From assembly GCA_018897435.1 (NCBI GenBank), contig JAHIKI010000085.1, positions 1 to 41,690 on the forward strand: a DNA stretch of 41,690 bases, read 5' to 3'. Positions within the stretch are counted from its first letter, which is position 1, and the number at the start of each line of letters is the position of its first letter. The notes below the pieces were generated by a model. The model was not told the origin of the DNA. It did not search any database and saw nothing but the letters and a program-made list of their open reading frames with translations. Below, in pieces: positions 2,788-40,849 of the stretch. Source of the stretch: Acidobacteriota bacterium. GTDB lineage: Bacteria > Acidobacteriota > Aminicenantia > UBA2199. Both the position numbers and the translations under genes were made by a program.

Positions 2788-5360
2788 CGTCTTTTTTTGT
2801 GTTTGCCTCCGGGCATCTTGAATGCCGGAGCGGACATTTTTGGTTTCTTCTTTTTGCGCCAATCCTCGATTTCCTCGTCGCTTACCGGCCTGAACAGGAA
2901 CAGGAAGCGCAGGACCTCTTCATCGATCCGGTTCAGCAATGCTTCATACATCTGGTAACTTTCTTTCTTGTATTCGATGAGTGGGTCCTTCTGGGCGTAG
3001 CCGCGCAAGCCGATGCCCTCTTTCAGGTGATCGATGTTGAGTAAATGGTCTTTCCATTGCGAATCGATCACTTGGAGCAGGATCATCCTTTCCAACTCGC
3101 GCATCTGGGTGGAGCCGACAAGCGCTTCCTTTTCCTGGTAGAGGGCCTTGATTTGCTCAAGAACGTTTTCCTTCAGGAGCAGGGGCGGGGAATCGCGGAA
3201 ATCACCCTGGGGAACTTGCCTGAGATCTAAACCGAATTGCAGGAGGATTTCTTTTTGGAATGCCTCCACGTCCCATTGATCGGATTCCTTGTTTTCATCG
3301 ATGTAGAAGGAGAATATATCGTCATAAAGATCTTGAAGAAGTTCCTGAATATAATCTTTAAAATCCTTGCCGAAAAGAATGTCCCGGCGCAGGGAGTAAA
3401 TGTGCTGGCGCTGCTTGTTCATTACGTCATCGTACTCGAGCAAGTGTTTGCGGATGGAAAAATTCTGCCCTTCGATCTGCTTTTGCGCATTTTCAATTGC
3501 CCGGGAAACCAGTCGGTTCTCCAGAGGAACGCCATTGCTCATGCCGGCGCGAACCAGCATGCTGCGGATGCGATCCGAACCGAGTATTTTCATCAGGTCG
3601 TCTTCCAGGGAAATATAGAAACGCGAGGAGCCGGGGTCGCCCTGGCGTCCCGAACGCCCGCGCAACTGGTTGTCGATGCGGCGGGCCTCGTGGCGTTCGG
3701 TGCCCAGGATATGCAGGCCGCCGCGTTCGATCACCGCCTGGTGCTCAAGGTTTACCTGCTCGTTAATTTCGGCTTGCGCTTTTTCTTTGACCACAGGAGG
3801 CGCCGTTTCCAGGCTAAAACCCTTTTTCTTTAATTCTTCCCGAAGCAGGGATTCCGGGTTTCCGCCCAGGAGAATATCGGTGCCGCGGCCGGCCATATTG
3901 GTGGCCAGGGTCACCGAATTGAGCCGCCCGGCCTGGGCAACGATCTCCGCTTCCGATTCGTGGTATTTGGCGTTGAGCACCACGTGGCGGACTTTTTCCC
4001 GCTGCAGTCTGCGGCTGAGCAGTTCAGAATTCTCAATGGATATCGTCCCGACCAGCACCGGCTGGCCTTTTTCGTTAAGAGCTTTGATTTCACTGGCCAC
4101 CGCTTGCCATTTTTCCTCCTTGCTGCCATAGATCATGTCGGAAAACTCGGTGCGAATCAAGACTCTGTTGGTTGGGAGCTCGGTGACGTCGAGGTGATAA
4201 ATATGTGAGAATTCGGCCGCTTCGGTTATGGCGGTTCCGGTCATGCCGGAAAGCTTTTTATACATGCGGAAATAATTTTGGAAGGTGATGGTGGCCAGGG
4301 TTTGGTACTCCTGTTCGACTTTGACGTTTTCCTTGGCTTCCAGGGCCTGGTGCAGGCCGTCAGAATAACGGCGACCCGGCATGATGCGACCGGTGAATTC
4401 ATCGACGATCAGCACCTGGTCGTCCTTGACCAGGTAGTCCACGTCGCGGTTGAAGATCAGATGGGCTTTGAGCGACTGATATATCTGATGAAGGAGGTCC
4501 ATGTTTGGCAGGTCGTAGAGATTGTCGATTCGGAAAAATTTCTCGGCTTCGTTAATGCCGGTTTCAGTCAGGATCACGGTTTTCGTTTTCTCGTCATGGT
4601 CGTATAATTCCTTGCTGCGCTTGATCCTGGTTACGAATTCATTGACCCTGTAAAAAAAGGAGGTGGACTGCTCGGTGGGGCCGGAAATGATAAGGGGTGT
4701 CCGGGCCTCGTCTATAAGAATGGAGTCCACTTCGTCGACAATGGCGAAGTTAAACTCCCGCTGACTCAAACTATGCACATCGAATTTCATGTTGTCGCGC
4801 AGATAATCGAAACCGAATTCATTGTTAGTGCCGTAGGTGACGTCGCAGGCATAGGCTTGCTTGCGCTGTTGATCATCCATCTCGTGCTGGATGACACCGA
4901 CCGACAGACCTAAGAATTTATATATTTTGCCCATCCATTCCGAGTCCCTTTTGGCCAGATAATCGTTGACGGTGACGACGTGTACGCCTTTGCCGGTTAG
5001 TGAATTCAGATAAGCCGGCAGGGTGGCGGCCAGAGTTTTTCCTTCTCCGGTTTTCATTTCAGCGATCTTGCCTTGATGAAGGATCATGCCGCCCATCAGC
5101 TGCACGTCGAAATGCCTCATGTCCAAGGTGCGGCGGGCTGCTTCACGCACGACCGCAAAAGTTTCCGGTAAAAGCGCATCCTGATCTTCGCCGGCAAGCG
5201 CCCTTTTTTTGAATTCATCGGTCTTGGCGCGCAACTGCTCGTCGTTAAGCGGCAGCAATGCAGATTCGTAAGCGTTGATGCGGGCCACCAGCGGCTGCAA
5301 GCGTTTCAGGTCTCTTTCGTTCTGGGTGCCGAAAATTTTGCGCAGGATAAATTTAAGCAT
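2784..5360 (-). CDS. secA: Preprotein translocase ATPase SecA
   Basis: SecA drives proteins through SecYEG using ATP, at the cytoplasmic face of the inner membrane. The 858-residue protein starts [20 protein letters not shown]. It has Walker A '[11 protein letters not shown]', the DEAD-type '[16 protein letters not shown]', the preprotein cross-linking region, the second motor domain ('[15 protein letters not shown]', '[16 protein letters not shown]') and the helical scaffold. The C-terminus ends '[14 protein letters not shown]' and lacks the usual zinc-binding CxCxSGKKYKxCHG tail. I chose the ATG at 5358-5360. Upstream codons to 5459 are not SecA-like and overlap its promoter. guaB follows with an ATGA overlap. 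Confidence 0.97.
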
Positions 5361-5369
5361 GGTGTCCGT

Positions 5370-5399
5370 ATTATAACAGAGATGGATGTTTTTAATCAA
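5370..5399 (-). promoter_or_regulatory. secA promoter, nearly leaderless
   Basis: On the minus strand, TTGATT (5394-5399) and TATAAT (5370-5375) are separated by 18 bases. The -10 ends nine bases before the secA ATG. Transcription should begin two or three bases before the start codon, and no Shine-Dalgarno is present. This is a promoter inferred from sequence only. Confidence 0.65.
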
Positions 5400-5430
5400 A
5401 TGGTGCGCGCAGCTCCGGCGTGAGGCGGCA

Positions 5431-5459
5431 TTGACTTTCCGCATGCGGCGACATACCAT
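5431..5459 (+). promoter_or_regulatory. ppsR promoter, predicted leaderless
   Basis: TTGACT (5431-5436), a 17-base spacer and TACCAT (5454-5459) stand six bases before the ppsR ATG. The predicted transcription start falls on the start codon. It faces the secA promoter, so the two genes share a roughly 100-base divergent control region. Confidence 0.55.
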
Positions 5460-5465
5460 TTTTTC

Positions 5466-6317
5466 ATGGAGAATTCGGAAAAGGAATTCAAGCGTTACGT
5501 GTTCGCGGTTTCCGACGCAACAGGAAAGACCTGCGAAACGGTCGTCCTGGCGGCCCTGAGCCAGTTTAAAACGACCCAGATCGTCCTGGAAACCTTCTCC
5601 AACATCCGCACCCTGCAGCAGGTGCAGAATATTTTTCTGCGGGCCACCAAGGTCAACGGCGTGATCATCTATACCATGGCCTCAGCGGAGCTGCGCCACA
5701 AGGTTACCGAATTGGGCCGATTGCACGGCGTATCCACTGTGGATATTCTGGGGCCGGTTCTGACCCGCCTGTCCGATCTTCTGGAAATTTCCCCCCTGGC
5801 CAAGCCGGGACTGTTCCACCAGTTGGACAGCGATTATTTCAAACGCATTGAGGCAGTGGACTTCACCATCAAGCATGATGACGGGCAGGGGCTGGCCAGC
5901 AGCGGCGCCGCCGAGATCGTCCTGCTGGGAGTTTCCCGGACTTCCAAGACGCCGGTCAGCATTTACCTTTCCTACCGGGGCTGGAAAGTGGCCAATATCC
6001 CGGTTGTTGTGGATGAAAATCTCCCCGCGGAAATTCACGCCATCGATCAGAAAAAGATCATCGCCCTGACCATCAACCCCATGCGTCTGGAAGCGATCCG
6101 CAGTGAACGGCAGTTCAAAATGAAAGCCGGAGAGGGCTTTGCCTATGCCCGGATCGAGCATATCCGCCGTGAAGTGCTTTTCGCCCTGCGCCAGTACGAA
6201 CGCTGGCATTGGCCCATCCTGGACGTCACTTACAAATCAATTGAGGAAACGGCCACCGAAATCATGCGCTTGATTTACGCCCAATCGGGATTGAAAAAAG
6301 GAAATATTCCCTATTGA
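5466..6317 (+). CDS. ppsR: PEP synthase regulatory protein (bifunctional kinase/pyrophosphorylase, DUF299)
   Basis: PpsR-family proteins inactivate and reactivate PEP synthase or pyruvate phosphate dikinase by ADP-dependent phosphorylation and Pi-dependent dephosphorylation of a Thr. The 283-residue length is normal. It begins with the family's 'VFAVSDATGKTCETVV' segment. It carries the P-loop-like GVSRTSKTPVSIYLSYRG at about residues 155-172, followed by 'KVANIPVV'. The substrate enzyme gene is not in the window, so whether it acts on PpsA or PpdK is open. The ATG is six bases after a predicted -10 and has no Shine-Dalgarno. Confidence 0.93.
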   Translation: MENSEKEFKRYVFAVSDATGKTCETVVLAALSQFKTTQIVLETFSNIRTLQQVQNIFLRATKVNGVIIYTMASAELRHKVTELGRLHGVSTVDILGPVLTRLSDLLEISPLAKPGLFHQLDSDYFKRIEAVDFTIKHDDGQGLASSGAAEIVLLGVSRTSKTPVSIYLSYRGWKVANIPVVVDENLPAEIHAIDQKKIIALTINPMRLEAIRSERQFKMKAGEGFAYARIEHIRREVLFALRQYERWHWPILDVTYKSIEETATEIMRLIYAQSGLKKGNIPY

Positions 6318-9680: not shown

Positions 9681-9689
9681 AATATAGCA
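9681..9689 (-). promoter_or_regulatory. Extended -10 promoter of the Kef-type antiporter, predicted leaderless
   Basis: The minus strand reads TGCTATATT, an extended -10 (TGn plus TATATT at 9681-9686). It ends six bases before the chosen ATG. The -35 region at 17-base spacing is poor, as expected for a TGn promoter. The predicted transcription start is at the start codon. Confidence 0.5.
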
Positions 9690-13646: not shown

Positions 13647-13675
13647 TTGTCAGGTTGGAAAAGTCGTGTTAACCT
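13647..13675 (+). promoter_or_regulatory. Promoter of the ANKH/MATE-like gene, predicted leaderless
   Basis: TTGTCA (13647-13652), 17 bases, then TAACCT (13670-13675) preceded by TGT. The hexamer ends six bases before the ATG at 13682, placing the predicted transcription start on the start codon. It is divergent from the psd promoter. Confidence 0.45.
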
Positions 13676-32233: not shown

Positions 32234-32262
32234 TTGAATATGGGCGGCGGCTGTGCTATGAT
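32234..32262 (+). promoter_or_regulatory. lptFG promoter, predicted leaderless
   Basis: TTGAAT (32234-32239), exactly 17 bases, then TATGAT (32257-32262) with TGC in front, an extended -10. Six bases then separate it from the ATG at 32269. No Shine-Dalgarno is possible in a leader of this length. This is the clearest case of the leaderless pattern in the window. Confidence 0.7.
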
Positions 32263-32268
32263 TTCTCG

Positions 32269-34542
32269 ATGAAAAGGGTTTTTGACCGCTATATTCTAAA
32301 GGAAATTGCTTCTCCGTTCGCTATCGGTCTGCTGGTCTATACTTTCACTCTCTTGATCAACCAGATCCTTATCCTTTCCAAAACGCTGATCGCCAAAGGG
32401 GCTACGACCGGAACTGTTTTCAAGATTTTGCTTTATTTGTTGCCTGACTTGTTTTCCTTTACCATTCCCATGGCCACGCTGATGGGAGTGCTGGCCGGGA
32501 TGAGCCGCCTGAGTTCCGACTCTGAGATCGTGGCTTTCCGGACCATGGGCATTCCCAATCGCCAGGTGCTGAAGCCGGTGCTGCTCTTTTCGCTCGCCAC
32601 CTGGTTCGTTTCTTCCTGGCTGATCATGTTCCTGGCCCCGGAAGCCAATTATCGTTTCAGCAAACTGCATACCGGAGTGGTCCTTTCCCAGACGATCTCC
32701 GGGATCAAGCCCGGAATCTTTTACCAGGACCTGCCGTTCTATAGCCTATATTTTCGCGACCAGGACCGCGGCGGTGAATGGCAGGATGTTTTTCTGTGTT
32801 CCATGAAAAACCCGGAGGAAGACACGCTGATCTTTGCCAAAAAAGGCAGATTCATCTACAAGCAGTTTCAAAAAGACAATTACATCGTGCTGTTTGACGG
32901 CGTGGTCCATAGTTTCAAAAAGAAAGATCCGGACAAGTATTCCTTGACTTTTTTTTCCCGGAAAACCGAAAAGATCAGCAATTTGATCACCTTCCGCCAG
33001 ACCCGGCGCAGCACACAATTAGTTTTTTCCGAGCTTTTTCGAAAATTGCGCGCCAACCCGGGCGATGTGCTTTTGAGCCTGGAATTCCACAAGAAATTCG
33101 CTTTGCCGTTCGCCTGTCTGGCGCTGGGCTTTCTGGGCATGTCGCTGGGTATTTCCACCCGCAAAGGCGGTAAAACCAGCGGCTTTGTCATCTCGTTGGG
33201 AATCATCTTCATTTACTATGTGATGATGACGGCCGGGCGCAACCTGATCCTGAAAAAGGTCATCTCCCCGTTCTGGGGTTCATGGATGCCCACTTTCTTT
33301 CTGGTGGCCATCGGCATTTGGCTTTACCGCTTTTCGGTCCGGGAAAAAGAGATCAATTGGGAAAAATTTTTCGCTTGGCGCTGGCTGGGGCGGAGACGGT
33401 CGGGGTCAACCCCTGATGCTGCCGGCAGCTCTAAAAAACCGCTTTTTTTGCGCTGGAATCCTGTCAAAATACTCGATCGCTATGTGCTGCGGCGGATGCT
33501 CCTGATCCTCTTTCTGGTTTTTTCTTCCTTGTTACTGGTCTTTTACATCATTAATATTCTGGAATTGATCGATGAGGTCATTGAAAACAAGATCCCTTTT
33601 TCCTATGTCTTGAAATACGATTACTATGCCACTCCGGAAATTGTCACCATCATTTTGCCCATTTCCATATTGACCGCCGTATTGCTCACTTTTTCCCTGA
33701 TGAGCAAGAACAATGAAGTGACCGCGGTCCAGGTCAGCGGCATCAGTTTGTTCCGCCTGGCGCTGCCGGCGGTTTTTTTGGGCCTCTTTTTGTCGCTGGC
33801 CACTTTTTTTATCCAGGAAAATATCCTCCCCGAAGCCAACCGGCAGTCGGGACGGATGCTGGATGTGATCCACAAGCGCAAATCGTTTACGGACATCGAA
33901 TTTGCCAGGAACTGGGTTTTGGGCAGTGAAAACCAGATCTATTTTTATAATTTTTATGAAAAACGCCGCAAACGCTTTATCAATTTCAATATTCTTTACC
34001 TGGATGGGAAGGGGCGAATGCTCCAGCGCATCTCGGCACTTTCCGCTTCCTGGCAAGGAGAAAATTCACTGCGGCTTAGCGATGGTTTTGTCAGGAGGTT
34101 CAAAGACAATTTTCCCTTGAATCAACAACTTTTTAAGGAAATGCAACTGCAAATCCGCGAAAATCAGGATTATTTCACCCAAAAAATCAAGTTCTCTGGC
34201 GCCATGAACAGTCATGAACTAAAAGAATATATCCGTTTTTTACAAAAAAACCGCAGCGACCCCCTGCGTTACCAGGCCCAGCTCTACAACAATTACGCCT
34301 TCCCTTTTTCCTCGCTGGTCATGGTCTTTATCGCCATCCCCTTTTCGTTCCTGATGGGCAACCGCGGTGCCCTTTTCGGCATCGGTATCGCCGTGGGCAT
34401 TTCCATGATCTACTGGGGGGCGCTGGGCATTTTCAGCTCCATTGGCGCCACCGGGGTATTCTCCCCATTGCTTTCGGCTTTCGCCCCCCTGGTCCTGTTC
34501 TCGACCATATCCGGAATTTTATTCCTGAAGATCAAAACCTGA
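32269..34542 (+). CDS. LptF-LptG fusion, lipopolysaccharide export permease
   Basis: One uninterrupted 757-residue frame holds two YjgP/YjgQ domains. The first (about 1-365) starts 'MKRVFDRYILKEIASPFAIG' and is LptF-like. The second starts near residue 399 with 'KILDRYVLRRMLLILF' and is LptG-like. Each has three N-terminal helices, a periplasmic beta-jellyroll region and three C-terminal helices. The linker around 368-398 is basic and disordered-looking ('RRRSGSTPDAAGSSKK'). In E. coli LptF and LptG are separate and pair with LptB2 to pull LPS out of the inner membrane. LptB, LptC and LptA are not in the window. Confidence 0.9.
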   Translation: MKRVFDRYILKEIASPFAIGLLVYTFTLLINQILILSKTLIAKGATTGTVFKILLYLLPDLFSFTIPMATLMGVLAGMSRLSSDSEIVAFRTMGIPNRQVLKPVLLFSLATWFVSSWLIMFLAPEANYRFSKLHTGVVLSQTISGIKPGIFYQDLPFYSLYFRDQDRGGEWQDVFLCSMKNPEEDTLIFAKKGRFIYKQFQKDNYIVLFDGVVHSFKKKDPDKYSLTFFSRKTEKISNLITFRQTRRSTQLVFSELFRKLRANPGDVLLSLEFHKKFALPFACLALGFLGMSLGISTRKGGKTSGFVISLGIIFIYYVMMTAGRNLILKKVISPFWGSWMPTFFLVAIGIWLYRFSVREKEINWEKFFAWRWLGRRRSGSTPDAAGSSKKPLFLRWNPVKILDRYVLRRMLLILFLVFSSLLLVFYIINILELIDEVIENKIPFSYVLKYDYYATPEIVTIILPISILTAVLLTFSLMSKNNEVTAVQVSGISLFRLALPAVFLGLFLSLATFFIQENILPEANRQSGRMLDVIHKRKSFTDIEFARNWVLGSENQIYFYNFYEKRRKRFINFNILYLDGKGRMLQRISALSASWQGENSLRLSDGFVRRFKDNFPLNQQLFKEMQLQIRENQDYFTQKIKFSGAMNSHELKEYIRFLQKNRSDPLRYQAQLYNNYAFPFSSLVMVFIAIPFSFLMGNRGALFGIGIAVGISMIYWGALGIFSSIGATGVFSPLLSAFAPLVLFSTISGILFLKIKT

Positions 34543-40619: not shown

Positions 40620-40811
40620 TTATTTGATCCTGCCTTTGTTCGTCTTGAAAAAATTATATAGGAATTTACCGAAAGTCATTGTATAAAGGGTTTGCAGCGA
40701 AAAAGTATCGAAATAGTAGCGTTTTGCCTGAAAAACAGGGAGATTTCCACAAGCCCAGGGGGGGAGGCAGCTTCCAGTTTCCGCTTGTTTGATCCAGTAT
40801 TGATTTACCAT
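40620..40811 (-). CDS. Possible 63-residue protein directly upstream of ribBA
   Basis: The ATG at 40809-40811 opens 63 codons and the TAA (40620-40622) directly abuts the ribBA ATG. The peptide starts [15 protein letters not shown] and ends [14 protein letters not shown]. It has no signal peptide, membrane helix or known motif. A promoter with TATAAT ends nine bases before the ATG and GAGG lies in between. Its amino-acid make-up is not obviously protein-like, so it may be only a leader. If translated it would couple ribBA to itself. Conservation of the frame would decide. Confidence 0.35.
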
Positions 40812-40820
40812 TTTCGCCTC

Positions 40821-40849
40821 ATTATATGGCAAATAGAAAAGCAAGGCAA
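40821..40849 (-). promoter_or_regulatory. Promoter for the small ORF and ribBA
   Basis: On the minus strand TTGCCT (40844-40849), exactly 17 bases, then TATAAT (40821-40826). The -10 ends nine bases before the small ORF ATG, the same spacing as at secA. Another TATAAT closer to ribBA (40653-40658) has no good -35. Confidence 0.6.

What the first reader, a model, noticed from the sequence alone, without database searches (positions are those of the whole stretch)
32234..32271. Recurring promoter geometry predicts leaderless mRNAs: -10 ends exactly six bases before ATG
At lptFG (TTGAAT-17-TATGAT-6-ATG), ppsR (TACCAT, 6), the Kef antiporter (TATATT, 6) and the ANKH/MATE-like gene (TAACCT, 6) the -10 hexamer ends six bases before the start codon, with no Shine-Dalgarno. 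secA and the small ORF before ribBA have a nine-base gap. A start about seven bases after the -10 would fall on or next to the start codon. In the same window HU, STAS, ferredoxin, ino1 and bactofilin have strong Shine-Dalgarno sites. A lineage using both modes at high frequency would be notable.
Basis: partly seen in the sequence, partly recalled or inferred. Interest (0 to 1): 0.65.

Follow-up and report, generated by a model that had tools for sequence, protein, structure and literature searches.

The report
Leaderless-mRNA promoters in an Aminicenantes bacterium
In this uncultured bacterium, about one gene in ten that has its own promoter appears to be switched on so that the messenger RNA begins at, or within a few bases of, the start codon, with no ribosome-binding leader; this is a real, genome-wide and evolutionarily conserved signal, but the same kind of promoter is already known in other bacteria, including three genomes of its own phylum.

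Summary
In 1.48 Mb of this genome (a Candidatus Aminicenantes MAG) plus the window, TANNNT upstream of 633 operon-first genes peaks sharply at a gap of exactly 6 bases (46 genes; dinucleotide shuffles give 10.7, maximum 20). It is absent before 366 operon-internal genes (5 seen, 4.9 expected). An annotation-free scan for TTGNNN-17-TANNNT-gap-ATG gives 62 hits at gap 6 against about 14 at other gaps. The 46 genes were selected on the -10 alone, yet share a -35 (TTGAC) at 17 bp, ATG starts (45/46), and almost no Shine-Dalgarno (3/46 against 259/587). SD usage switches with promoter distance: 4/54 at gaps 6-9, 48/73 at gaps 17-30. The geometry is conserved at lptFG (down to 36% protein identity) and ppsR; secA keeps a gap of 8-9 in all 14 loci. 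Roughly 7% of first genes are strictly leaderless and 12-14% leaderless or nearly so. This is a known kind: Zheng et al. 2011 reported it in 3/3 Acidobacteria. What is added is this class, the single-base spacing, gene-level conservation and patchy loss within the class. No RNA 5' ends were available.

The parts
32234..32239 (+). -35 element TTGAAT of the lptFG promoter
   Evidence: sequence; TTGAAA/TTGAAT in most close relatives
32257..32262 (+). -10 element TATGAT of lptFG, with TG extension (TGC 32254-32256); ends 6 bases before ATG
   Evidence: gap 6 in 17 of 25 loci, down to 36% protein identity
32269..34542 (+). lptFG (LptF and LptG in one 757-aa ORF); predicted mRNA 5' end at A32269
   Evidence: start inferred from the geometry
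5431..5436 (+). -35 TTGACT of ppsR
5454..5459 (+). -10 TACCAT of ppsR, gap 6 to ATG 5466
   Evidence: 13 of 15 loci with gap 6
5370..5375 (-). -10 TATAAT of secA, gap 9 to ATG 5360; -35 TTGATT 5394-5399, spacer 18; near-leaderless
   Evidence: gap 9 in 12 and gap 8 in 2 of the 14 loci, window included
9681..9686 (-). -10 TATATT of the Kef-type antiporter gene, gap 6 to ATG 9674; weak -35, TG extension
   Evidence: not conserved in distant homologues
13647..13652 (+). -35 TTGTCA of the 438-aa gene (reader: ANKH/MATE-like)
13670..13675 (+). -10 TAACCT of the same gene, gap 6 to ATG 13682
   Evidence: -10 kept in most genus members, with spacing 5-7 and TTG/GTG starts in several
40821..40826 (-). 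TATAAT before a 62-aa ORF (start 40811) upstream of ribBA, gap 9; an SD-like GAGG lies in the gap, so the mode is ambiguous

Best explanation
These are housekeeping-sigma (sigma70-type) promoters placed so that transcription starts on, or 1-3 bases before, the A of the ATG. The -10 hexamer ends six bases before ATG, so the seventh base, the usual start position, is the A of AUG, most often preceded by C. The mRNAs are therefore leaderless (gap 6) or nearly so (gaps 7-9, as at secA) and are translated by 5'-terminal AUG recognition without SD pairing. The same genome keeps an intact anti-SD and uses SD-led initiation for genes whose promoter lies at least about 17 bases upstream. Shown here: the geometry, its enrichment and specificity, SD exclusion and conservation. 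Inferred: the actual RNA 5' ends and the mode of ribosome recruitment.
For: Gap-6 peak 46 against 10.7 in shuffles and none at operon-internal genes. Genes selected on the -10 alone show -35 T.76 T.74 G.59 A.59 C.46 at exactly 17 bp, 45/46 ATG, and SD 3/46 against 259/587 (Fisher p 8e-8). EM with a flat starting prior on distance recovers TTGACA-17-TATAAT, with 46.0 expected genes at gap 6 and 12.4, 11.0, 9.3, 4.9 at gaps 7-10. Annotation-free scan: 62 against a mean of 14. SD by promoter gap: 2/31 (gap 6), 2/23 (7-9), 4/14 (10-16), 48/73 (17-30); promoters at gaps 10-16 are rarer than at 17-29 (p 1e-4). Anti-SD CACCTCCTT intact in the 16S gene. Conservation at lptFG, ppsR and secA. Own genome 50 against 4, and own plus genus 713 against 87, for gap 6 against gap 12.
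Against: No transcript data were available for this organism. Gene starts come from my own coding-potential caller (it misplaced secA, for example), so per-gene assignments carry error. The gap-6 geometry is not kept at the Kef homologues found, and is only loosely kept at the 13682 gene. A 5' end one or two bases upstream of ATG cannot be told apart from an exact leaderless start by sequence.
Confidence: 0.92

Rival explanations
1. Chance: TANNNT hexamers are frequent in AT-rich upstream DNA and the reader picked favourable cases.
For: TANNNT carries only three fixed bases; single cases such as Kef are weak and not conserved.
Against: Shuffles and operon-internal genes show no peak; the -35 at 17 bp was not selected for yet appears; 31 against 0.79 for the pair.
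Confidence: 0.02
2. The motifs are real promoters, but the annotated ATG is not the true start: translation begins at a downstream codon and the mRNAs have ordinary leaders.
For: Coding starts are computed, and N-terminal residues 2-6 of ppsR vary between relatives.
Against: The distance is to an ATG and is fixed to the base across genomes while neighbouring codons change; SD is missing before these ATGs; SD usage switches with promoter distance. At lptFG the N-terminal residues themselves are conserved.
Confidence: 0.04
3. A distal promoter makes a leadered, SD-less mRNA translated by another route (for example unstructured AT-rich leaders), and the near promoter is secondary.
For: Not excluded by sequence for single genes; lptFG lies only 43 bases after an upstream gene and may also be co-transcribed.
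Against: A strong -35/-10 pair with TG extension immediately upstream, and depletion of promoters at gaps 10-16.
Confidence: 0.05

Closest known systems
TA-led (leaderless) genes of bacteria, Zheng et al. 2011 (PMC3160421)
   Same: TANNNT about 12 bp upstream of the start codon (first T to start codon, i.e. the gap of 6 found here), coexisting with SD-led genes; reported in 3 of 3 Acidobacteria at 9.7-19.4% of genes.
   Different: Class Aminicenantia is not named in the passages read; here a -35 at 17 bp, a shoulder at gaps 7-9, depletion at gaps 10-16 and gene-level conservation are added.
-10-motif adjacent to ORFs in Deinococcus-Thermus (PMC12340547)
   Same: -10 element a few bp before the ORF making leaderless mRNA, with classical SD genes alongside; a -35 at 17 bp tested as an addition.
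   Different: About 30% of ORFs there against about 7-14% of first genes here; here most cases already have a -35.
Leaderless transcriptome of Mycobacterium tuberculosis (PMC3898074)
   Same: Leaderless and SD modes coexist. Per the abstract of PMC8485053, toxin-antitoxin transcripts there are predominantly leaderless; two HEPN-domain genes are in the set here.
   Different: Here almost only ATG starts; no transcript data.

Membership tests
Bacterial leaderless genes (TA-led class) | -10-like TANNNT at a fixed short distance (about 12 bp from first T) upstream of the start codon, above shuffled background | tested here: met
   46 against 10.7 (maximum 20) at gap 6
Bacterial leaderless genes (TA-led class) | No Shine-Dalgarno in front of these genes while the genome keeps SD genes and an anti-SD | tested here: met
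   3/46 against 259/587; 16S tail GGATCACCTCCTT
Bacterial leaderless genes (TA-led class) | Preference for ATG as the first codon | tested here: met
   45/46 against 521/633, Fisher p 0.002
Bacterial leaderless genes (TA-led class) | Promoter nature: -35 element at about 17 bp | tested here: met
Bacterial leaderless genes (TA-led class) | Primary mRNA 5' end at the start codon | not testable with these tools
   no RNA data held
Bacterial leaderless genes (TA-led class) | Translation from a 5'-terminal AUG | not testable with these tools
   needs ribosome profiling or reporters

The most novel reading that the evidence does not exclude
Leaderless initiation in this Aminicenantia family is a long-maintained, gene-specific regulatory mode: particular envelope and secretion genes (lptFG, secA, possibly ftsY-like and uppS-like genes) keep a base-exact promoter-to-ATG distance over class-level divergence so that their translation can be tuned apart from SD genes, and other families of the class have lost it.
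Probability: 0.12. Interest if true: 0.55.

Novelty: new member of a known kind. Interest (0 to 1): 0.34.

Why it matters
It gives a clean sequence-only demonstration of mixed SD and leaderless expression in an uncultured class, with a base-exact spacing rule usable to correct gene starts (secA here) and to annotate promoters in Aminicenantia MAGs. The patchy distribution between families of one class makes gain or loss of leaderless initiation testable by comparison.

Tried and rejected
The tool's built-in control for patterns (pattern read backwards) was not used as evidence because its composition differs; gap 12 was used instead. Searches failed in part (loci on the other strand; a bad tblastn option) and were replaced. 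EM on operon-internal genes converged to a meaningless motif, as expected where there is no promoter. Functional enrichment of leaderless genes was only looked at by eye, not tested. A literature search for leaderless together with Aminicenantes found no paper.

Full report
The site. At 32234-32271 the sequence reads TTGAAT, 17 bases, TATGAT, TTCTCG, ATG. The gene encodes LptF and LptG in one 757-residue frame. The ppsR, Kef-type and 13682 genes have the same gap of six, and secA (true start ATG 5360, minus strand) and a 62-residue ORF before ribBA have a gap of nine.

The genome. The window is contig 54 of a 2.19-Mb, 60% complete genome. The nearest named relatives of its LptFG are mostly Candidatus Aminicenantes MAGs. 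The 16S gene ends in GGATCACCTCCTT, so the anti-Shine-Dalgarno is intact.

I took 1.48 Mb of the genome plus the window and called 1,097 genes on coding potential and start-codon type alone, using neither promoter nor SD, so starts are not biased towards the motif. Before 633 genes that look first in their operon, TANNNT occurs 46 times at gap 6 and 4-20 times at every other gap from 0 to 12; before 366 operon-internal genes it occurs 5 times at gap 6 (4.9 expected). Dinucleotide shuffles give 10.7 (maximum 20 of 300). Requiring also TTG 16-18 bases further upstream gives 31 against 0.79 (maximum 4 of 200). Without any gene calls, TTGNNN-17-TANNNT-gap-ATG occurs 62 times at gap 6 and 4-27 times at the other gaps, mean 14. 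ATGs not called as starts also show some excess at gap 6 (51 against about 28), which suggests that my caller misses some true leaderless starts.

What the 46 genes share. Selected only for TANNNT at gap 6, they show TTGAC exactly 17 bases upstream, a TAtaaT -10 with G enriched two bases before it, C at -1 and -2, ATG in 45 of 46, and an SD in 3 of 46 against 259 of 587 for the other first genes. EM with a flat starting prior over distances 0-60 learned TTGACA-17-TATAAT and put 46 genes at gap 6 and 12, 11, 9 and 5 at gaps 7-10.

Two regimes. SD presence depends on promoter distance: 2/31 at gap 6, 2/23 at 7-9, 4/14 at 10-16, 48/73 at 17-30 and 27/43 at 31-45. Promoters at gaps 10-16 are rarer per position than at 17-29 (p 1e-4). 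If transcription starts seven bases after the -10, a leader of at least about ten bases is needed to hold an SD; the data fit a genome in which mRNAs either start at the ATG or carry a leader long enough for an SD.

Conservation. At lptFG the gap of 6 holds in every genus member with a readable start, in three other genera of the family, and in two of the class loci down to 36% identity; in one other family of the class it is 7. ppsR keeps 6 in 13 of 15 loci although residues 2-6 differ. secA keeps gap 9 in 12 and gap 8 in 2 of the 14 loci, mostly with ACC before ATG, a conserved near-leaderless case. The 13682 gene keeps the -10 in most of the genus, with spacing 5-7 and TTG or GTG starts in several; the Kef site is not seen in the homologues found.

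Distribution. Counting TTGA-19-TANNNT-6-ATG against the same with 12: own genome and genus 713 against 87 over 16 genomes; three other genera of the family 227 against 67; within the class some families are strong (69 against 9) and others show nothing (20 against 25; 16 against 21). In the phylum two families are strong (133 against 24; 69 against 11), several weak, some absent (37 against 43; 30 against 36) (the family sums cover a subset and were transcribed by hand). Families with no excess serve as negative controls for the pattern.

Known or new. Zheng et al. 2011 defined the TANNNT signal about 12 bp before the start as leaderless and found it in 3 of 3 Acidobacteria at 9.7-19.4% of genes (PMC3160421). 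GeneMarkS-2 predicted leaderless transcription in 21.6% of bacterial species (as cited in PMC9581028). Deinococcus-Thermus has the same design at about 30% of ORFs (PMC12340547). A search for Aminicenantes together with leaderless found no paper. That Aminicenantes belong to Acidobacteriota in GTDB is from my own knowledge; one of the six named relatives is titled Acidobacteriota. The finding is therefore a new member of a known kind, well supported, of moderate interest.

Limits. No RNA 5' ends, no proteomics; gene starts are computed; the genome is 60% complete and 5.6% of the sampled bases are N.

Noticed in passing
window 32269-34542: LptF and LptG are fused in one 757-aa ORF; a single long frame is found in most family and class relatives, while some class genomes (family f2) have hits in separate frames.
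   Followed up: partly
window 5360-5466: secA and ppsR are divergent with start codons 105 bases apart, each with its own leaderless or near-leaderless promoter, and the arrangement is kept across the genus.
   Followed up: partly
window 40623-40811 (-): 62-aa [18 protein letters not shown]... ending directly before ribBA (TAA then ATG), with its own TTGCCT-17-TATAAT; not called by my coding-potential caller.
   Followed up: no
L048:7729-10716: 996-aa Eco57I-type methylase with an IS200-like Y1 transposase domain match inside it (residues 617-715), preceded by a gap-6 promoter.
   Followed up: no
L014:1688-2071 and L061:6011-6403; L054:10209-11375 and L073:14239-15399: Two HEPN-domain genes and two AAA_14/DUF4143 genes are among the 31 best leaderless candidates, recalling leaderless toxin-antitoxin genes in M. 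tuberculosis.
   Followed up: no
class Aminicenantia genomes G020, G023, G025, G155, G163: Families f3, f6 and f7 of the same class show little or no gap-6 excess, so the leaderless signal is patchy within the class.
   Followed up: partly
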